Shown: positions 2,901 through 36,603 of the stretch, one piece after another
Layout of the letters: each line of letters starts with the position of its first letter
How positions within the stretch are numbered: the first letter of the stretch is position 1
Assembly: GCA_021791495.1 (NCBI GenBank)
Contig: JAJYWN010000033.1
Span: forward strand, 1-39,953
Direction of reading: 5' to 3'
Length of the DNA: 39,953 nt
Source: Bacillota bacterium
GTDB lineage: Bacteria > Bacillota > Sulfobacillia > JAJYWN01
Notes under the pieces: model-generated
What the model saw: the letters and a program-made list of their open reading frames with translations, nothing else
Told to the model about the DNA's origin: nothing
Databases searched by the model: none
Program-made: the position numbers and the translations under genes

Positions 2901-3941
2901 TCACGGCGCCGGCCGCCGCGGCGAAGCGGGACTGGGCGTCGCCGAAGCTGATGGTTTTGGCATTCTGTACTGTAGTCTGAGCGCTTCAGGGTCAGCAGGG
3001 TCCAGGGCCAAGGCTTCGGCCAACACCTGTACCGCTTCCTGACTCTCACCGCACGCCAGCAGGACTTCCGCCAATATCACTTGCTCCTCCGCACACGGAG
3101 GATCCAACTCGAAGGAACGGCGCAGGAAGGAGAGGGCGGCGGTTTCATCGCCTTGGGCATGGGCAACCTTGCCTTTGAGGAACAAACCATAGGCCTCGAA
3201 AACCTTGTTAGGATTGAGGTGAAGAGCCTTCTCAATCGCCGAGGAAGCATCATCCAGCCGACCGAGAGCTACGTAGCTTTCCGCCAAGTCGAGCCAAAGC
3301 TCCGGGTCGCCCGGACGACTGGCCAGATCCGCCTTATACTCTTCCACGAGACTCGCTTCGACCTCACGCGATAGACTCGGAGACAACTGCGCGAGCCGGG
3401 CGGCGCGCCGCGCTTCCGTGGAAAGCTCGCGGGCGGTTACATCGAGCAGATGGGACTTAACGGCCAAGTCAAACAGGGCCCCGGATGATGGTTCAGCCAG
3501 GGGTGCCAGGCGGTCAACGCCCGCGCCGACCAGGGCGGCGAACGGTTCGGCCGCCCGCCGGACGTTTAGGGTGGCCATTCGGAGATGAAAGAACCGGGGG
3601 CCTTGGGGCCAGGCTCCGCCCTTGGGGCTTTCACCCGTCGGATATGCGAGCGCGGCTTCGGCCACTTGGCTAAGCCTGTGGCCGGACAACCGGAAGGTTT
3701 TAGCGCAGACACGGACTAGCTGGCGGCAATGGTGGGCTAGCTCCGATGCCGCGATTTCTAGGTCGATCAGGAAGAAATACAGCTTCGGGAAGCTATCACT
3801 CCCCTCCGCTGCCTCAATGACCCGGATCATGTCTTCAGACTGATCGACGACCTCGTCGAGGGCCAAGGCCAGGTCCAGGGGAAGTCCGACGTCGATCGCG
3901 GTAACGTGCAAATACGAGGATTTCACGGGCCTCTCAGTCAC
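2901..3941 (-). CDS. Tetratricopeptide-repeat protein, function unknown
   Basis: A 346-residue soluble protein. The N-terminal ~180 residues are helical and I do not recognise them. From about residue 205 to 325 there are three or four TPR units: LWLDLAESYVALGRLDDASS, an AYGLFLKGKVAHAQGDETAA segment, and VILAEVLLACGESQEAVQVL, each followed by the usual ALxLxP turn. The tail is Pro/Ser-rich. The start is GTG at 3939-3941, overlapping the stop of the upstream gene by 8 nt (GTGACTGA), so translation is probably coupled. TPRs usually mediate protein contacts, and the partner may be the upstream product. No signal peptide is seen. Confidence 0.85.
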   Translation of the reverse strand: MTERPVKSSYLHVTAIDVGLPLDLALALDEVVDQSEDMIRVIEAAEGSDSFPKLYFFLIDLEIAASELAHHCRQLVRVCAKTFRLSGHRLSQVAEAALAYPTGESPKGGAWPQGPRFFHLRMATLNVRRAAEPFAALVGAGVDRLAPLAEPSSGALFDLAVKSHLLDVTARELSTEARRAARLAQLSPSLSREVEASLVEEYKADLASRPGDPELWLDLAESYVALGRLDDASSAIEKALHLNPNKVFEAYGLFLKGKVAHAQGDETAALSFLRRSFELDPPCAEEQVILAEVLLACGESQEAVQVLAEALALDPADPEALRLQYRMPKPSASATPSPASPRRPAP

Positions 3942-4359
3942 GGGTGTCCACTCCTCTCTCCTTCAGGGCTTCCTCGACCATGGACATGGCGCGGTGGGAC
4001 AGTACCCGGTCTGGAAAATGGTTAATGGTCTCTTGAACTAGCTCTAAAGCAAAAGGAAAGACCTCAGTCGTGTGTTTCTCGTGTATGCGGGCTAACTCTG
4101 TAGCTACTATCCCTGCATGTTTGGCGATATCGTTCCACCATTTGAGTTCGCATTGGTTGCGATGGGGACTTGTACGGATCTTATCGAGGTGATCAAGAAT
4201 TGGCTTTGTTCGGTGTGTCACCCTGCGGAGCAGGTCCTTCCTGGAATAGCCCAAAGTGGGGGCTCCCAGTGGTCCGAGTCTACTTAGTACGCGGCCACCG
4301 AAGAGGGCAGTTTCGCCACCGTCTGCCAGAATCCTCCAACCATGGCTACATCGTGACAA
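3934..4359 (-). CDS. Hypothetical protein coupled to the TPR gene
   Basis: A 141-residue protein that I do not recognise. It is basic and helical in the middle (LLRRVTHRTKPILDHLDKIR), with KWWNDIAKHAGIVATELARIHEKH and VEEALKERGVD towards the end. It has no membrane segment. The start given is TTG at 4357-4359. There is no convincing ribosome binding site, so the true start could be downstream. The stop overlaps the GTG of the TPR gene by 8 nt, the main argument that this frame is real and co-expressed. It is divergent from the PPOX-family gene at 4464. Confidence 0.65.
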   Translation of the reverse strand: MSRCSHGWRILADGGETALFGGRVLSRLGPLGAPTLGYSRKDLLRRVTHRTKPILDHLDKIRTSPHRNQCELKWWNDIAKHAGIVATELARIHEKHTTEVFPFALELVQETINHFPDRVLSHRAMSMVEEALKERGVDTRD

Positions 4360-4463
4360 GTTGCCCGCAAGGAGATAAAGTCAATTGTGGCGGTTCTGGC
4401 TCTGGCTCGGCAGCCCACCAGACCATTCGCAAGCCCAAGAACCGGCCGAAAGGGGTCTTTCAC

Positions 4464-4955
4464 TTGCCGCTCAGCATCGTCCGAAGACCGGACCGAAGAG
4501 GGACTTTCGAAGAGGCTGTGGACCTGGTAGCCCGGTCCCAGATCGGGCACCTGGGGACCGTGACCGACGACGGCTACCCGTACGTGATCCCGATCTTCTA
4601 TGCCATGCTCGACGGGCGCATCGTCTTCCATTCCGCAAGGGCCGGGCAGAAGATGGCGAACATCGCCCGTGACAGCCGCGTCTGCCTGGAGGTTTCCCAC
4701 TCGGCGGGGTTCGCGCCTAATGAGAAGCTGTGCGATTGGGAAGCCCGGTACGAGAGCGCCGTGGTCTTCGGGCGGGCCAGCGTGGTGACCGATCCGGAGT
4801 CGAAAATGGCGGCGCTCCAGGCCATTGCCCGGAAGTACGCGGGCACGACTGACTACTCGACGATCAAGAACCTGGCGTCGGTAGCGGTCGTCGCCATCAC
4901 GATCGAGGCTGCCAGTTTCAAGAAATATTGGCCTGCTGAGCGTCCCACGAACTAG
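4464..4955 (+). CDS. Pyridoxamine 5'-phosphate oxidase family protein (NimA-like)
   Basis: A split-barrel flavoprotein of 163 residues. The motif series RRPDRRGTFEEAVDLVARSQ, GHLGTVTDDGYPYVIPIFYA, FHSARAGQKMANI and RVCLEV is characteristic of the Nim/FMN-binding group. Members bind FMN, and some reduce nitroaromatics, but the substrate here is unknown. The open frame extends ~100 codons further upstream, but that part does not look like protein. TTG at 4464-4466 is chosen because an AAAGGGG ribosome binding site sits 8 nt before it and it gives the usual family N-terminus. It is transcribed away from the TPR pair. Confidence 0.85.
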   Translation: MPLSIVRRPDRRGTFEEAVDLVARSQIGHLGTVTDDGYPYVIPIFYAMLDGRIVFHSARAGQKMANIARDSRVCLEVSHSAGFAPNEKLCDWEARYESAVVFGRASVVTDPESKMAALQAIARKYAGTTDYSTIKNLASVAVVAITIEAASFKKYWPAERPTN

Positions 4956-7581: not shown

Positions 7582-8436
7582 CTAGTTCAACAGCTTCTTG
7601 TGCTTCAGAATTTCCTCGGTCAGTATCCTCGCGACGTTAGTCTGGAGGCCCTTGCCTTCGACCTTGGTGGCGAAGAAGAGGACGTTGTCATCCGTCTCAA
7701 GATAGCCCACAAACCAAGCCAGGTGACCTCCGGCGAAACCGGTCTTGCCCGAAAGAACGCTCCCGTTTCCCCTTGCTAGCACCATGATCCGTTTCACCGT
7801 GTCGATGTTCTTCGGCGAAAAAGGCAGCTCCGACGCGTAGAACTCCCTCAGGAAAAGGACCTGCTCCAAGGGGGATATCCGTAGAGACGAGTCCAGCCAG
7901 AAGGTGGTTAGCCCTCCGGAGAGATTGGCGTTCCCATAGTGGGTCTCGTCTAGGAAGCGCTGCATCCGCTCTTTGCCAACGCCCGAGGCCAGCCGCTGAT
8001 AGTACCAGACCACGGAGGCGGAAAAGGCTGAGGCCAGGGTGTGATCACCATTCCAGGCAGGAATCTGATACCGAATCCCGTCCCACTTGAACAGCGTGTT
8101 CTCATCCTGCACGACCCCGGTCTCCAGTCCGATGAGGGAATTCAGGATCTTGAAGGTCGAGCAGGGCGACACCCGCTTCTGGCTGTCCTTCTCATTGTAG
8201 ATAGACCACTCGTTCTTGTTCCGATCGAATAGAACGAAGCTTCCGCTGACGCCCGCAAAGTACTGCCCCAAGGCATCGGGGGTGATTTTCTCCTTGATGT
8301 CGGTTAGCGGCGTCGCCGTTCGGTTAGCTTCGGCAATCAGCGTCTGCCTGGACCAATACCGGAACCCGAGGAAACCCAGTAGGAGAAATGCGATGGCCGC
8401 CAGGGCAATCGCAGCCTTCGTTCTCACCGTTCGCAT
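7582..8436 (-). CDS. Class D (OXA-type) beta-lactamase or penicillin-sensing homologue, membrane-anchored or exported
   Basis: A 284-residue serine hydrolase. All class D motifs are present in order: PCSTFK (nucleophile S93, carbamylable K96), SVV (141-143), YGN (167-169), KTG (231-233) and the WFVGYLE strand after it. The N-terminus has one hydrophobic segment (about 8-26), a signal peptide or anchor without a lipobox. The same fold forms the sensor domain of BlaR1/MecR1, but the four-helix metalloprotease part of those receptors is absent, so a stand-alone enzyme is more likely. The ATG at 8434-8436 has GGGGGTG 6 nt upstream. No BlaI-type repressor is seen nearby. Confidence 0.92.
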   Translation of the reverse strand: MRTVRTKAAIALAAIAFLLLGFLGFRYWSRQTLIAEANRTATPLTDIKEKITPDALGQYFAGVSGSFVLFDRNKNEWSIYNEKDSQKRVSPCSTFKILNSLIGLETGVVQDENTLFKWDGIRYQIPAWNGDHTLASAFSASVVWYYQRLASGVGKERMQRFLDETHYGNANLSGGLTTFWLDSSLRISPLEQVLFLREFYASELPFSPKNIDTVKRIMVLARGNGSVLSGKTGFAGGHLAWFVGYLETDDNVLFFATKVEGKGLQTNVARILTEEILKHKKLLN

Positions 8437-29174: not shown

Positions 29175-29720
29175 GAGACTCCCCCTCCGACTTGGCGGCT
29201 TCTACTCGCCGGCTTCCACTTGCCAGCTTCCAACTCCTGTCAGTATTGGGCCATATTCCTATGACGACGCAAGAAGGGCCTCGGTTCTCCCCAGCATCTC
29301 ACCGCGACTTGGTGGCTCCATCAAGAGGTGGCCTTCCAAATGCCATTTGCACTTCCTGGCCTACTGAACGTGTTCAAAAAATGACATGCCTGGCCTGGCT
29401 TTTGCATTAAACGTTTCTAGATGTCTTCGCTCAGACTCCAGCCGCAACTGAACAGGTTGCTGACCAGAAAGCGTTGTAGCCGCCCTCGAAGTCGGGTCTT
29501 CTCGTGGGGTTTGGCGGCGCCAGGTGCTCAAATCTAAGGGCCGTTAAGGCGACCAAGGGTTCCATTCCTGCCACATAGGACAGCGCCGTATCCAATCATG
29601 ACTTGTCCTGGGGGCGTCTATTTCCAGAGGATGCCACATAAAGGTTCGAAAAGCTGGGCGAGCTGTATTGGCCTACGCCACAGTGGAGATAGGTGATATC
29701 CGTAGACAGGAGGTGACGGC
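29175..29720. other. Long intergenic region
   Basis: About 545 nt between the divergent DUF3160 and small-protein genes, less GC-rich than its neighbours. I see no gene. It contains the sigma-54-like site at 29391-29406 and short repeats (GCCACATA at about 29570 and 29633). Confidence 0.5.
29391..29406 (+). promoter_or_regulatory. Sigma-54-like promoter element
   Basis: TGGCCTGGCTTTTGCA has the -24 GG and -12 GC exactly 10 nt apart, with TTGCA at -12, close to the RpoN consensus. The nearest downstream gene is at 29721, about 310 nt away, and no enhancer-binding activator is in the window, so this is a sequence match only. Confidence 0.3.
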
Positions 29721-29909
29721 ATGCCTCTCGAGAAGCGGGACACTGGAGACGGAAGGGTCGTAGTGACGGACAAGCGATACCGGCTTCCCAAAAATCACGA
29801 CCCCGAGGTCGAAGCCGTCTGGGCCAAGAGGTTCATGGACGGCTATCTGGACTTGACTGAGACCATATACCAGTTAACCAGGCCGCCAAAGAAAAAAAAC
29901 GGGCGATAG
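29721..29909 (+). CDS. Small protein A of a convergent paralogous pair
   Basis: 62 residues, MPLEKRDTGDGRVVVTDKRY, then RLPKNHDPEVEAVWAKRFMD, ending in a Lys-rich tail. Core DGR-VVTDKRYRLPK and VWAKRF-DGYLDL recur in the convergent gene at 29917. An excellent ribosome binding site, AGGAGGTG, lies 5 nt before the ATG, so translation is very likely. The fold is not known: possibly a short beta-hairpin followed by a helix. It ends 7 nt from the stop of its paralogue. No family name comes to mind. Confidence 0.8.
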   Translation: MPLEKRDTGDGRVVVTDKRYRLPKNHDPEVEAVWAKRFMDGYLDLTETIYQLTRPPKKKNGR

Positions 29910-29916
29910 GCAGCTG

Positions 29917-30120
29917 TTAGGCCCCTGTCTTGTCCGCCTTGTTTTCGTCTCCGTCTTCAATGGCACAAGCTATCTCTTCCAAGGACAACTCCACGGCCAG
30001 ATAGGCGTCGCGGAACCTGCGCGCCCACAGCCGCAGGACGTCCTTCTCTCCCTGCTTCGGCAGCCGGTATTTCTTGTCAGTAACCAGGGTCCTTCCATCA
30101 ACGATCTTTTTCTGCATCAC
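29917..30120 (-). CDS. Small protein B, paralogue of protein A
   Basis: 67 residues: (V/M)MQKKIVDGRTLVTDKKYRLP, then KQGEKDVLRLWARRFRDAYL, with an acidic tail (EDGDENKAD), the opposite charge to the basic tail of protein A. The shared core is DGR--VTDK(R/K)YRLPK and the W-A-(K/R)-R-F helix. The start is GTG at 30118-30120, 7 nt after AGGAGG. The next codon, ATG, is the alternative. The start region overlaps the last 20+ nt of the membrane/GAF-like gene on the same strand, so expression is coupled to it. Confidence 0.8.
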   Translation of the reverse strand: MMQKKIVDGRTLVTDKKYRLPKQGEKDVLRLWARRFRDAYLAVELSLEEIACAIEDGDENKADKTGA

Positions 30121-30859
30121 GCTCAAACCTCCTGACCGAGCTGACAAGGATACCTAGTGGAGCGGCGTACGGCATACATAGATCCATCACGCGTTCTTGG
30201 TCAAGGCCTGACCCCGATAGCGGGAGTTTCGAGTCCACGTTCAGACACCCGACGGCCTTGGCTGGGTTCTTAGGTCCCGGAAGCGGCATCGCAAGAACCG
30301 AGCCGACGTTGCGTATGGCGGGAAGCTGCTTCTCGTTAATCCCCCAGGGGGTGGAACCGTCCGGTCTCCTGAACTCCTTAAACTGCGCAGCCTTGTAAGG
30401 CGTCCAGTCACCGGAAACTGGGCCGCCGTCTGAAACCGCCAACCCGCAGCACCCTTCTATGAGTCCGTCCTTTCCTCCTGCAGACCAGGCAAGTTTGAGC
30501 TCAGACGCCGAGAAGCGGCCTCTATGCCAACGGATTCGCAGGTATCTGTCTTTGCCCAGCACCATGACGTTGACCCGATAGCCGTTGCCAAGTACGGCGG
30601 AAAGCCTCCTGAGGTAGGTAACGATGAGCTTCTCCTGAAGGGCAATCCGTTTGTACTTTTCCCTTTGGCGGAACGCGACAACGGCCAGAACCGTGCCGAA
30701 ACGCGTCACCCATATCATCGTGATGATGATGGGAACAGCGAACTTCTGGGGCAGCCAACTCTTCACGACGTCGGTGCCCGAGATGAACCAGGCGAGAAAG
30801 AGGTTGACGTATGTGGCGTCGATGCTGAGCCACGTCCAGAATCGCCGAAGATTCATCAT
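30098..30859 (-). CDS. Membrane protein with C-terminal GAF-like domain
   Basis: 253 residues. Two N-terminal transmembrane helices (about 10-30, YVNLFLAWFISGTDVV, and 42-64, VPIIITMIWVTRFGTVLAVV) are followed by a basic amphipathic stretch (RQREKYKRIALQEKLIVTYL). The cytoplasmic domain resembles a GAF sensor: YLRIRWHRGRFSASE, WSAGGKDGLIEGCCGLAV, and the closing RNVGSVLAMPLPGP, then AVGCLNVDSK and PYAAPLGILVSSV. A late cysteine pair (CC) is notable. Start ATG ATG at 30854-30859, with a weak ribosome binding site. Small protein B follows, overlapping. No output domain is fused, so a signal would have to be passed to a partner, perhaps the small protein. Confidence 0.8.
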   Translation of the reverse strand: MMNLRRFWTWLSIDATYVNLFLAWFISGTDVVKSWLPQKFAVPIIITMIWVTRFGTVLAVVAFRQREKYKRIALQEKLIVTYLRRLSAVLGNGYRVNVMVLGKDRYLRIRWHRGRFSASELKLAWSAGGKDGLIEGCCGLAVSDGGPVSGDWTPYKAAQFKEFRRPDGSTPWGINEKQLPAIRNVGSVLAMPLPGPKNPAKAVGCLNVDSKLPLSGSGLDQERVMDLCMPYAAPLGILVSSVRRFERDAEKDR

Positions 30860-31543: not shown

Positions 31544-31767
31544 TACGCTTCAGCGCTCCTCTCTCAGGCCGTTCATGGGTTGCCGTCGAGCTTGTGCCAC
31601 ATACCTTCGACGCGGGGAGGAGAACCACTGTTCTGCGCCAAGTAGTCAAGTCGAATCGGTCGGTGTTTGCTTGGGTCTGCGGGCACGATTCCTGCTCCCT
31701 CTCGGTCTGAGACATGGTCCGAGGGCTAGGCACGGAATACTTGCGAAAAGTAGTGGAGGCGATAGAG

Positions 31768-32361
31768 ATGTCACATCCGCCGGCTACGCTGAGCAGGACC
31801 AGACTCGTTGAGGCACTCGTGGCCACCCTCGACCGGGCGATGCCGACCTGTTCGAGGTTCGCCTACCGGCTGGTTGGGACCGGGGCGGCCCTGCTGCACG
31901 GAGTGGACTTGCCGGCAGCCGACATCGACATCCTGGTGCGGGAGAGGAAGGCGGTGGACGCGTTCGGGGCAGCGCTGTCCGAGTTCAAGTGTATTGACGA
32001 GCCGGCCTGGCTACCCGACGCGAAGCAGTACTATGGCAACTGGGAGGTCACCGGAGTCGAGGTCGGCTTCAGCACGGTCGAACTTGAGTCGGACCTGGAC
32101 ACCATCGAAACCTTTGGCCGCGGCCCATGGGAGCACTTCGTGCACCTGCCGTGCGGCAGCCATGAAGTGCCCACAGTGTCGCTGGAACTGCGACTTATCA
32201 CAGAGGTCTGCCGCGGCCGCGCCGAACGGTACGGGCCCCTGATCGAGCACCTTCGTGCCAAGGGTTGCGACCTTGGTCTGGTTCACAGAGGACTCGTCAC
32301 AAGGGGTCAGCCGGAAGAGGTGCGCGAACAGGTGATGAGGAGACTCAGGCGGTTCCCTTGA
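31768..32361 (+). CDS. Nucleotidyltransferase-fold protein (MNT/AbiEii-like)
   Basis: 197 residues. The catalytic-type motif is YRLVGTGAALLHGVDLPAAD followed by IDIL, i.e. the G-(S/T) strand-turn and D-x-D metal pair, though with GTG in place of the usual GS. The later SLELRLITEVCRGRAERYGP is a helix as in AbiEii-type enzymes. Its substrate cannot be told. ATG at 31768 is chosen for GGAGG 8 nt upstream; the longer frame from 31714 adds 18 weak codons. It precedes the Imm-5-like gene by 25 nt on the same strand. Confidence 0.8.
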   Translation: MSHPPATLSRTRLVEALVATLDRAMPTCSRFAYRLVGTGAALLHGVDLPAADIDILVRERKAVDAFGAALSEFKCIDEPAWLPDAKQYYGNWEVTGVEVGFSTVELESDLDTIETFGRGPWEHFVHLPCGSHEVPTVSLELRLITEVCRGRAERYGPLIEHLRAKGCDLGLVHRGLVTRGQPEEVREQVMRRLRRFP

Positions 32362-32386: not shown

Positions 32387-32914
32387 ATGGATAGGCGAAT
32401 GATCTTCACGAAGATCCGAGACCCCAGGCTTGTCACCGTGCGCCGCGGTGGCAGCCTACTGGATGCCGATCATCACCTTCTTGCAGTGTGGGCGGCCGAT
32501 TGCGCGCAGCATGTGCTGCACTTCTTCGAGCAATCGCAACCCGGTGACGACCGTCCGCGCCGAGCGATAGAACAGGCACGCGCTTGGGCGCGGGGTGAGA
32601 TCAGGATGACGGAAGCCCGAACGGCAGCCTTTGCCGCCAATGCCGCGGCTAGAGAGGTGTTTGGCGCCGCGAAGGAAGCGGCTCACGCCGCCGGGCAAGC
32701 AGCGGCGGTGGGTCATGTGGCAGCTCACGAGCTGGGTGCGGCGGCATACGCGATCAGGGCCGTGCGCGCGGCGACTCCTGAAGGCGGGCGGGATGAGGCC
32801 GGTCGCTTGGAGTGCCAGTGGCAGCGTGCACAGCTTCCAAGCGAGATCCGCGAACTTGTGCTCGACGACCAAAGGCTACGCAACGAGAAATGCTGGTCCT
32901 TGTTCGATTGCTAA
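32387..32914 (+). CDS. Imm-5-like (putative immunity) protein, copy 1
   Basis: 175 residues. WAADCAQHVLHFFEQ with DDRPRRAIEQARAWARGE and the Ala-rich helices (FAANAAAREVFGAAKEAAHA) match proteins annotated in databases as putative immunity or Imm-5-like. It is all-helical. The C-terminus RELVLDDQRLRNEKCWSLFD is typical too. The true function is not established in general; the name comes from toxin neighbourhoods. The ATG at 32387 or a second at 32399 may be used. A paralogue lies at 36046-36603. Confidence 0.75.
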   Translation: MDRRMIFTKIRDPRLVTVRRGGSLLDADHHLLAVWAADCAQHVLHFFEQSQPGDDRPRRAIEQARAWARGEIRMTEARTAAFAANAAAREVFGAAKEAAHAAGQAAAVGHVAAHELGAAAYAIRAVRAATPEGGRDEAGRLECQWQRAQLPSEIRELVLDDQRLRNEKCWSLFDC

Positions 32915-33069: not shown

Positions 33070-34029
33070 CTAGAACGCGAACCGTTGGGTACCTATGGTT
33101 ATTGCCAACGGGCGGGCCCAGAGGTACTTGTTCGTGACTATCCGGTAGTCGAAGAAGTACAGCGCCCCACCGGTCGGGTCCGAACCAGCCACCGCCTGGC
33201 GGGCAGCCTTGATGGAGTCGGCCGAGGGTGCCCTGTTAATGGTGCCGTTGGACACTGGCTCGAACTGGTTCTTCTGGTAGATTACTCCCGATAGGGTGTT
33301 CGGGAATTGGGAGCTTAGCATACGGTTGATCACCACCGCGCCGACGGCCACCTTGCCCAGGTATGGTTCGATGCCTGCTTCGGCCTGAATGAGGTGGGCC
33401 AAAAGCATGATGTCCGCCTCGCCGGCCTGAATGCGGGGGTGGGTCCCGGAGCTGGACGGAGGTTGGTCGGGGGAGGCCGTCAGTCCGAGGGCCTTGTTCG
33501 TAGCCGCATCGACCACCGCCGTGACCGCAAGGCCGCGGTCGGCCTGGAATCGACAGAGGGCGGAAACGGTCTTTCCCATGAGCACGCCGTTCACCGGCCC
33601 AACGTCATACCCCTTGGCCGCCAGCGCCCGCTGCAACTGCTCCACACCGGGCCCGGTGTCGCCCACCGTAAACGGGTAAGCGCCGAGATTGGCTGTGACA
33701 TAGTGGAAGTGCTGGTTCAAGGCCTCCAGGATGGCGTCCCTGGTGGCGGCGTTCACCTTGCCCGTGACGGGGAGACCCCAGTCCCGCTGAAACGCGGATA
33801 CGCGGTTCCCGGTGACCGGGCCGAAGAAGCCTGTGTAGATCCTGACGGGGTAACCCAGAAGGTCGAGGTCGGACTGCAGCGCGGCTACCTGCGCATTTTG
33901 GTCACCGTACGATAGTGGAGCGGCTAGGGTGGCCGCCGCGGCGACCTGGGGGACTCCAAGCAAGACTGCGGATACGATGAGCAAAGACGAAGCGAGAAGA
34001 CGAATCGATTTGGTGAAGTGCCTTGGCAA
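33070..34029 (-). CDS. sleB: Spore cortex-lytic enzyme SleB-like hydrolase
   Basis: 319 residues: a signal peptide (hydrophobic LLASSLLIVSAVLLGVPQVA, cut near AAA-TLAAP), two peptidoglycan-binding domains (about 41-100 and 121-182, each ending AFQRDWGL / RFQADRGL), a Pro/Ser linker, and a Hydrolase_2 catalytic domain (205-319) with E217 in LIQAEAGIEPY, the family glutamate. The enzyme is a lytic transglycosylase of spore cortex, supporting a spore former. TTG at 34027-34029 is preferred because AGGAGG lies 8 nt upstream. An in-frame ATG at 34048-34050 places that site inside the gene. SleB is usually under sigma-G, and no clear site is seen. Confidence 0.9.
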   Translation of the reverse strand: MPRHFTKSIRLLASSLLIVSAVLLGVPQVAAAATLAAPLSYGDQNAQVAALQSDLDLLGYPVRIYTGFFGPVTGNRVSAFQRDWGLPVTGKVNAATRDAILEALNQHFHYVTANLGAYPFTVGDTGPGVEQLQRALAAKGYDVGPVNGVLMGKTVSALCRFQADRGLAVTAVVDAATNKALGLTASPDQPPSSSGTHPRIQAGEADIMLLAHLIQAEAGIEPYLGKVAVGAVVINRMLSSQFPNTLSGVIYQKNQFEPVSNGTINRAPSADSIKAARQAVAGSDPTGGALYFFDYRIVTNKYLWARPLAITIGTQRFAF

Positions 34030-34105
34030 AAGGCAAACCTCCTTTGTCATTCCTTTGATGGGCGGACGCCGGGAGTTTTCTTTGCAGGCAGGACGAGGGT
34101 TTGTT

Positions 34106-34147
34106 GGATGGACCCTGAACACATGGTAACATAACAAGGGTCCATCC
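34106..34147. repeat. Inverted repeat upstream of sleB
   Basis: 11-bp perfect arms GGATGGACCCT (34106-34116) and AGGGTCCATCC (34137-34147), spacer 20 nt. It lies 77-118 nt before the sleB start and may be an operator or a hairpin ending transcription entering from the right. Confidence 0.6.
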
Positions 34148-36045: not shown

Positions 36046-36603
36046 TCAGGCCTCGAGGCCTTGGACCGGACCTCGGATGCCCGCATCCAGCTCATAGAGG
36101 AGCATGTCCAGGCGACTCTTTCCGGCTTGACGAGAGGGCATCTGCAGCAGGACTTCGCGCACTTCAAGGGTGACGTGTTCGATTGCCCAACGAACCTCAC
36201 CATCGCCGATGCTTGGATCGCCGCCGTGGTCGAGTTCAAGTGCCAGAGCGGCATAGGCCGCCGGACCGACAATGTGCTTTGTTTGCTGGACATCCGCCAA
36301 TGGATGCGTGTAGGCGCTCGACGCCGCAAGGCACGCGGCGTTGGCGGCGGCGGCTGCCGCGGGATCGTCCGCCTCGCGTGCAGCGGCATACGCCGACAAG
36401 GCAAGGGTACGCAACTGAGTCGTTCGCCTTCCCCCAGCGGCGAACACCCGAATGCCTCCAATCGCGGCACGGGGCCGGGAATCTGAATCAGCATGCTTCT
36501 CATATATGGGCAGCGCTCTTTCCGCGCAGTCCGCGGCCCAGCTCCCCAAGGCCCTAAGTGACTTCAGGGTTAGCGCGAAGTACTTCTTGAACTCGCGACC
36601 CAT
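36046..36603 (-). CDS. Imm-5-like (putative immunity) protein, copy 2
   Basis: 185 residues, helical and Ala-rich: SWAADCAERALPIYEKHADS, DSRPRAAIGGIRVFA, LSAYAAAREADDPAAAAAAN, ending in LLQMPSRQAG and LDMLLYELDA. It shares WAADCA, D-RPR-AI and AAARE with the 32387 gene, and may be an ancient duplicate. The ATG at 36601-36603 has AAGGAGG 6 nt upstream. No adjacent toxin with a recognisable domain is seen. Confidence 0.8.
   Translation of the reverse strand: MGREFKKYFALTLKSLRALGSWAADCAERALPIYEKHADSDSRPRAAIGGIRVFAAGGRRTTQLRTLALSAYAAAREADDPAAAAAANAACLAASSAYTHPLADVQQTKHIVGPAAYAALALELDHGGDPSIGDGEVRWAIEHVTLEVREVLLQMPSRQAGKSRLDMLLYELDAGIRGPVQGLEA

What the first reader, a model, noticed from the sequence alone, without database searches (positions are those of the whole stretch)
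29721..30120. Convergent pair of paralogous ~65-residue proteins with opposite tail charges
Two small genes face each other with 7 nt between stops and encode the same core (DGR--VTDK-YRLPK ... WA-RF-D-YL). Tail A is Lys-rich (RPPKKKNGR), tail B Asp/Glu-rich (EDGDENKAD). Each has a perfect AGGAGG site, so both are very likely translated. I know of no named family. Convergent paralogues could regulate each other by antisense or act as a complementary pair.
Basis: partly seen in the sequence, partly recalled or inferred. Interest (0 to 1): 0.62.

Follow-up and report, generated by a model that had tools for sequence, protein, structure and literature searches.

The report
SpoIIS-like toxin–antitoxin module, spare antitoxin
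The two tiny facing genes are real and related, but the one on the minus strand is the second gene of a two-gene unit with a membrane protein that closely resembles, in layout, a known bacterial self-poisoning system (SpoIIS), so the pair is most likely an antidote plus a spare copy rather than two partners that regulate each other.

Summary
In detail: A (29721-29909 +, 62 aa) and B (29917-30117 -, 66 aa) are convergent paralogues, 7 nt apart, each with a perfect AGGAGG; A-B protein similarity exceeds all 5000 shuffles. The "pair" reading misses the main fact. B overlaps by 20 nt the 3' end of a 253-aa gene (30098-30859 -) encoding N-terminal membrane helices plus a divergent GAF domain. A third paralogue, C, on another contig follows a truncated copy of that gene. 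Distant relatives of the membrane-GAF gene occur in about ten other Bacillota genomes and on a Leptospira plasmid. Nearly all are followed by a 57-80 aa gene, and several lie beside restriction-modification or Wadjet genes. No library names the family. Its anatomy matches the SpoIIS toxin-antitoxin system (membrane-GAF toxin SpoIISA, tiny antitoxin SpoIISB, duplicated second antitoxin SpoIISC) and the GAF-membrane toxin toxFtsLD9, but Pfam's SpoIISA/SpoIISB models do not match. Best explanation: an unnamed SpoIIS-like module in which B neutralises the membrane-GAF protein and A is an extra antitoxin (about 0.5). Toxicity and neutralisation are inferred, not shown. The opposite tail charges are not conserved (C is basic), arguing against a charge-complementary pair. 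Antisense overlap is not excluded but unsupported.

The parts
29721..29909 (+). Gene A, 62 aa, stand-alone paralogue; proposed second (orphan) antitoxin
   Evidence: no membrane-GAF gene or remnant found upstream
29708..29713 (+). AGGAGG ribosome-binding site of A, 7 nt before ATG
29917..30117 (-). Gene B, 66 aa, second gene of the operon; proposed antitoxin
30128..30133 (-). AGGAGG ribosome-binding site of B, 10 nt before ATG, inside the upstream gene
30098..30859 (-). Membrane-GAF gene, 253 aa: N-terminal hydrophobic helices, C-terminal divergent GAF domain; overlaps B by 20 nt; no recognisable ribosome-binding site at the listed start; proposed SpoIISA-like toxin
29910..29916 (.). 7 nt between the convergent stop codons of A and B
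29797..29818 (-). Terminator-like stem plus T run for the B transcript, inside A (antisense); weak, may be chance

Best explanation
A chromosomal toxin-antitoxin module that works like SpoIIS of Bacillus. The 253-aa gene (30098-30859 -) makes a membrane-anchored GAF-domain protein that damages or disturbs the membrane or cell division when free. B, translated from its own strong ribosome-binding site inside the end of the toxin gene, binds the cytosolic GAF domain and keeps it inactive. A is a diverged duplicate of B that has lost (or never had) its toxin gene and acts as a second antitoxin or anti-addiction copy, as SpoIISC is to SpoIISB. Shown: the homology of A, B and C, the overlapping gene order, the GAF relationship of the family, recurrence of the two-gene layout in other genomes, and defence-island or mobile context in several. 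Inferred: toxicity, binding, neutralisation, and A's role.
For: (1) B overlaps the membrane-GAF gene by 20 nt; C follows a 5'-truncated copy of the same gene by 4 nt. (2) Membrane-GAF relatives in 10 of 154 genomes of the class (own genome included), plus G168, G381 and a Leptospira plasmid, nearly all followed closely by a 57-80 aa gene. (3) GAF assignment: relatives reach the Pfam GAF cut-off and the family profile weakly finds solved GAF domains 3o5y/3ksg. (4) One type of partner gene is under purifying selection (dN 0.03, dS 0.30). (5) Same anatomy as SpoIISA (248 aa, membrane helices + GAF), SpoIISB (56 aa), SpoIISC (45 aa), with antitoxin duplication documented in Bacillus and antitoxins diverging beyond recognition (PMC6562991, PMC4926146, PMC4526809). 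(6) toxFtsLD9, a membrane-helix + GAF protein, is a validated toxin (PMC10440598). (7) Patchy distribution, broken copies, and neighbours such as Wadjet genes, type III R-M and RmrA. (8) Where the large gene is broken (C8, G034, G381, G501) the small gene is still open, as expected for an antitoxin, though this is weak (see against).
Against: Pfam SpoIISA (PF14171) and SpoIISB (PF14185) do not match; profile comparison with a true SpoIISA and SpoIISB gives nothing. Only about two membrane segments rather than three. Many partner genes elsewhere carry a membrane helix, unlike SpoIISB. Intact-small/broken-large loci could be chance, because the small gene is a roughly fourfold smaller target, and frameshifts may be assembly errors. 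No expression or toxicity data. Structure predictions were too weak to use (pLDDT 38.6 and 65.7).
Confidence: 0.5

Rival explanations
1. The membrane-GAF protein is a membrane-tethered sensor and effector of a phage-defence module (or an accessory of R-M/Wadjet islands) and the tiny protein is a co-effector or signalling partner rather than an antidote; in relatives the tiny protein with its own membrane helix may even be the toxic part.
For: In G519/G521 the unit directly follows a type III R-M gene and in G521 it is convergent with RmrA; in G168 it lies between Wadjet genes; in G475 it follows a gene with an HmaC-like match. Type-1 partners have a strong C-terminal hydrophobic helix. GAF domains are classic ligand sensors (established knowledge).
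Against: The window copy is not beside an R-M or Wadjet system; A, B and C have no membrane helix; orphan A and C survive without an intact large gene, odd for a co-effector.
Confidence: 0.27
2. A and B are a convergent pair that regulate each other by antisense or form a charge-complementary complex.
For: 7-nt gap; opposite tails; a terminator-like stem for the B transcript lies inside A.
Against: C is not in a convergent pair and has a basic tail; no unusual RNA fold at the junction; the A/B arrangement was seen only here.
Confidence: 0.06
3. A (and C) are decaying leftovers of former toxin-antitoxin loci with no present function; only B works.
For: A has no partner gene and diverges from B with a weak purifying signal (dN 0.36 / dS 0.52 uncorrected); C's large gene is truncated.
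Against: A keeps an intact frame, the shared core motif and a perfect ribosome-binding site.
Confidence: 0.15

Closest known systems
SpoIIS (SpoIISA-SpoIISB-SpoIISC) toxin-antitoxin system of Bacillus
   Same: About 250-aa protein with N-terminal membrane helices and C-terminal GAF domain, followed by a tiny gene; a second paralogous tiny gene nearby; patchy, horizontally moving copies outside Bacillus (PMC4926146, PMC6562991).
   Different: No sequence match to PF14171/PF14185 or to a real SpoIISA/SpoIISB; about two instead of three membrane segments; the second small gene is convergent, not in the operon; partner genes of relatives often carry a membrane helix.
toxFtsLD9-PanA toxin-antitoxin pair of Gelidibacter mesophilus (NetFlax)
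   Same: Membrane-helix plus GAF protein of 281 aa encoded in a two-gene unit (PMC10440598).
   Different: Its antitoxin is a Panacea-domain protein, not a 60-aa peptide; no FtsL-type match here.
fRMsr-type and other free-standing GAF proteins (3ksg, 3rfb)
   Same: GAF fold; G-x-C-G motif in the family (GCCG).
   Different: Membrane-anchored; the segment that holds further catalytic cysteines in fRMsr (from own knowledge) is replaced by TR-x-LGS-x-x-SIP, and GCCG is not kept in all members, so an enzyme role is unlikely.

Membership tests
SpoIIS toxin-antitoxin | Toxin of about 250 aa with N-terminal transmembrane helices and cytosolic GAF-fold domain | tested here: met
   P0003 253 aa, hydrophobic N-terminal helices, GAF by family profile and relatives
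SpoIIS toxin-antitoxin | Match to Pfam PF14171 (SpoIISA) | tested here: not met
   0 matches in own genome; a true SpoIISA in G196 matched with 285 bits
SpoIIS toxin-antitoxin | Match to Pfam PF14185 (SpoIISB) | tested here: not met
   A and B have no Pfam family at E 1; a true SpoIISB matched
SpoIIS toxin-antitoxin | Three transmembrane helices with the invariant Arg38, Tyr42, Asp78, Asp225 | tested here: inconclusive
   about two membrane segments; sequences not alignable with SpoIISA
SpoIIS toxin-antitoxin | Small antitoxin gene directly downstream of the toxin gene | tested here: met
   B overlaps by 20 nt; C and relatives likewise follow closely
SpoIIS toxin-antitoxin | Toxicity of the large protein and neutralisation by the small one | not testable with these tools
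   needs expression experiments
toxFtsL (NetFlax D9) | FtsL-like helical domain and PanA partner | tested here: not met
   no FtsL/DivIC match at E 1; the adjacent partner is a ~60-aa gene without any Pfam family
Known anti-phage defence families (PADLOC-DB 2.0.0) | HMM match of either gene | tested here: not met
   none of 9 membrane-GAF members matches; A/B none credible

The most novel reading that the evidence does not exclude
A widespread, unnamed family of membrane-GAF + tiny-protein modules, not related by sequence to SpoIIS, sits in Bacillota defence islands and acts as an abortive-infection system in which the GAF domain senses a small molecule made during infection and the tiny protein sets the threshold; orphan copies such as A act as anti-addiction antidotes.
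Probability: 0.22. Interest if true: 0.72.

Novelty: new variant of a known kind. Interest (0 to 1): 0.45.

Why it matters
SpoIISA is a membrane toxin built on a GAF domain whose trigger and physiological role are unknown. A diverse family with the same layout outside Bacillus, several members beside phage-defence genes, suggests that the layout is general and offers natural variants to test what the GAF domain senses. It also shows how a striking 'convergent pair' can be an antitoxin plus a spare copy.

Tried and rejected
Pfam, NCBIfam, PHROGs, PADLOC searches of A and B and a PDB search of B: nothing usable. Scans of genome contigs (B, membrane-GAF protein) and viral contigs (B, alignments A3/A4): no relatives; plasmid and phage tblastn: only the Leptospira plasmid hit and one non-significant phage hit. 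Weak A1-profile hits in long frames of G088, G325, G348, G474, G460 were judged chance. Homology of B to the partner genes of other genomes: the motif VTD-x-[RK]-[FY] is shared with the type-1 partners and pairwise scores beat most shuffles (1/2000 to 28/2000 for the best pairs), but the profile comparison (E 0.012, 3.5% probability) and the frame-ranking test (ranks 5 of 1659 and 3 of 690) do not establish it; type-2 partners and the Leptospira partner show no consistent similarity. AlphaFold models were too poor to search folds with. RNA structure at the stop-stop junction is not unusual. I considered using broken-large/intact-small loci as proof of toxin identity, but the small gene is only about one fifth of the combined target, so four out of four is expected about 0.4 of the time by chance; it is only consistent.

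Full report
What was checked. The window is one whole contig (C27, 39,953 bases) of a 4.2-Mb draft genome in 81 contigs. Each has AGGAGG, 7 and 10 nt before its ATG. A and B are paralogues: whole-genome six-frame search E 2e-9, alignment score 114 against at most 52 in 5000 shuffles. The DNA similarity is limited to a 44-nt block within the genes, which argues for an old duplication and against an assembly artefact.

A third copy and a partner gene. The same search found a third paralogue, C, on contig C8 (L008:3375-3551; B-C score 87, maximum of shuffles 53). B's start lies inside the end of a 253-aa gene, 30098-30859 (-), with a 20-nt overlap. Directly upstream of C, 4 nt away, is the C-terminal remnant of a homologue of that same gene. 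A has no such gene or recognisable remnant. So B and C belong to a two-gene unit and A is the odd one out. The listed start of the 253-aa gene has no evident ribosome-binding site, whereas A and B have perfect ones; this would fit stronger synthesis of the small protein, but the true start of the large gene is not certain.

The large gene. It has hydrophobic N-terminal helices (one clear segment at residues 44-62 and a weaker one before it). Distant relatives were found on a Leptospira interrogans plasmid (L011), in G168, G034 and G381 of the phylum, and with a five-row profile in 10 of 154 genomes of the class, the window's own among them. The C-terminal part is a divergent GAF domain: four relatives reach or exceed the Pfam GAF cut-off (others below it), and the family profile weakly finds solved GAF domains. 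Motifs kept in most members are R-x-N-[VIL]-M, G-C-C-G, W-G-[IL] and a G-V-L-N-x-D strand.

The small partner genes. Of the loci that are not cut by a contig end, nearly all have a 57-80 aa gene right after the large gene; in G524 a 367-aa HTH protein takes its place. There are at least two sequence types: type 1, with the motif [DNSE]-[AG]-T-x-x-V-[TV]-D-P-R-F and a C-terminal membrane helix (G034, G519 twice, G521, G501, G475); type 2, with K-K-G-L-Y (G168, G041, G038). That these are real genes is supported for type 1 by dN 0.03 against dS 0.30 between G519 and G521. Window A/B share V-T-D-x-[RK]-[FY] with type 1 at the same place in the protein, but this relationship is suggestive only.

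Context. In G519 and G521 the unit directly follows a type III restriction gene, and in G521 it also faces an RmrA-type antitoxin gene; in G168 it lies between Wadjet JetA/C/D and a second JetA/JetB; in G475 it follows a gene with an HmaC-like match. In G034 the large gene is split by about 3 kb with transposase-like frames. The distribution is patchy (6 of 34 genomes in one family). The window's own neighbourhood has no R-M system but carries a PIN-domain gene and two Imm5-like genes.

Mechanism. A literature search led to SpoIIS of Bacillus: SpoIISA is a 248-aa membrane toxin with a cytosolic GAF fold, neutralised by the 56-aa SpoIISB and by the 45-aa paralogue SpoIISC; the two antitoxins arose by duplication independently in two lineages and have diverged nearly beyond recognition (PMC6562991, PMC4926146, PMC4526809). 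A second membrane-helix + GAF protein, toxFtsLD9, is a validated toxin with a different antitoxin (PMC10440598). The window module has the same parts in the same order: membrane-GAF gene, tiny overlapping gene, and a paralogue of the tiny gene close by. The most likely mechanism is therefore that the membrane-GAF protein is toxic when free, B binds and silences it, and A is a second antitoxin. None of toxicity, binding or silencing has been shown.

Membership. By sequence it is not SpoIIS: PF14171 gives no match in this genome and no above-cut-off match in the class, neither A nor B matches any Pfam family, and profile comparison with a true SpoIISA and SpoIISB from G196 finds nothing. SpoIISA itself is so variable (about 20% identity between the B. 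subtilis and B. cereus types, PMC4926146) that this failure does not exclude common origin. So: works like SpoIIS, plausibly; a member of the Pfam family, no.

The charge-complementary idea is weakened by C's basic tail and by the fact that the convergent layout was seen only for A/B. Antisense overlap cannot be excluded: a terminator-like stem for B's transcript lies about 100 nt beyond B's stop, inside A, but overall terminator hits are within chance and the junction RNA is unremarkable.

Verdict. A real, moderately interesting find: most likely not a regulatory pair but one antitoxin-like gene of an unnamed membrane-GAF module plus a spare copy; a new variant of a known kind.

Noticed in passing
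L008 (G000 C8) 3153-3551 and 3616-4635: 5'-truncated membrane-GAF remnant with an intact third small paralogue C, just upstream of a gene that reads like spore photoproduct lyase (from own knowledge of the family).
   Followed up: partly
window 32387-32914 (+) and 36046-36603 (-): Two Imm5-like putative immunity genes (PF21805, E 6e-41 and 1e-20) within 4 kb, without an evident polymorphic toxin between them.
   Followed up: no
window 31714-32361 (+): 215-aa protein with a nucleotidyltransferase-like motif (GTGAALLHGVDLPAADIDILV) but no Pfam family above cut-off, next to the module.
   Followed up: no
window 7582-8436 (-): Penicillin-binding transpeptidase-domain protein of 284 aa with S-T-F-K and a lipophilic N-terminus; looks like a class D beta-lactamase (one search gives the domain; class from own knowledge).
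   Followed up: no
window 33070-34137 (-): Cell-wall hydrolase with peptidoglycan-binding repeats; looks like spore cortex-lytic SleB, suggesting a spore former.
   Followed up: no
L045 6111-7214: In G524 the gene after the membrane-GAF gene encodes 367 aa with an HTH domain, a glycine-rich hydrophobic stretch and an N-terminus (PGLHIQADTGFDLIQPGYRP) that may echo the small partner.
   Followed up: partly
L011 2908-3911 (Leptospira interrogans plasmid p2): Membrane-GAF relative with a 4-nt-overlapping 80-aa gene, followed by a nucleotidyltransferase/HepT-type toxin-antitoxin pair.
   Followed up: partly
L036 (G034): Membrane-GAF gene split by about 3 kb of transposase-like frames while the small gene stays open.
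   Followed up: partly
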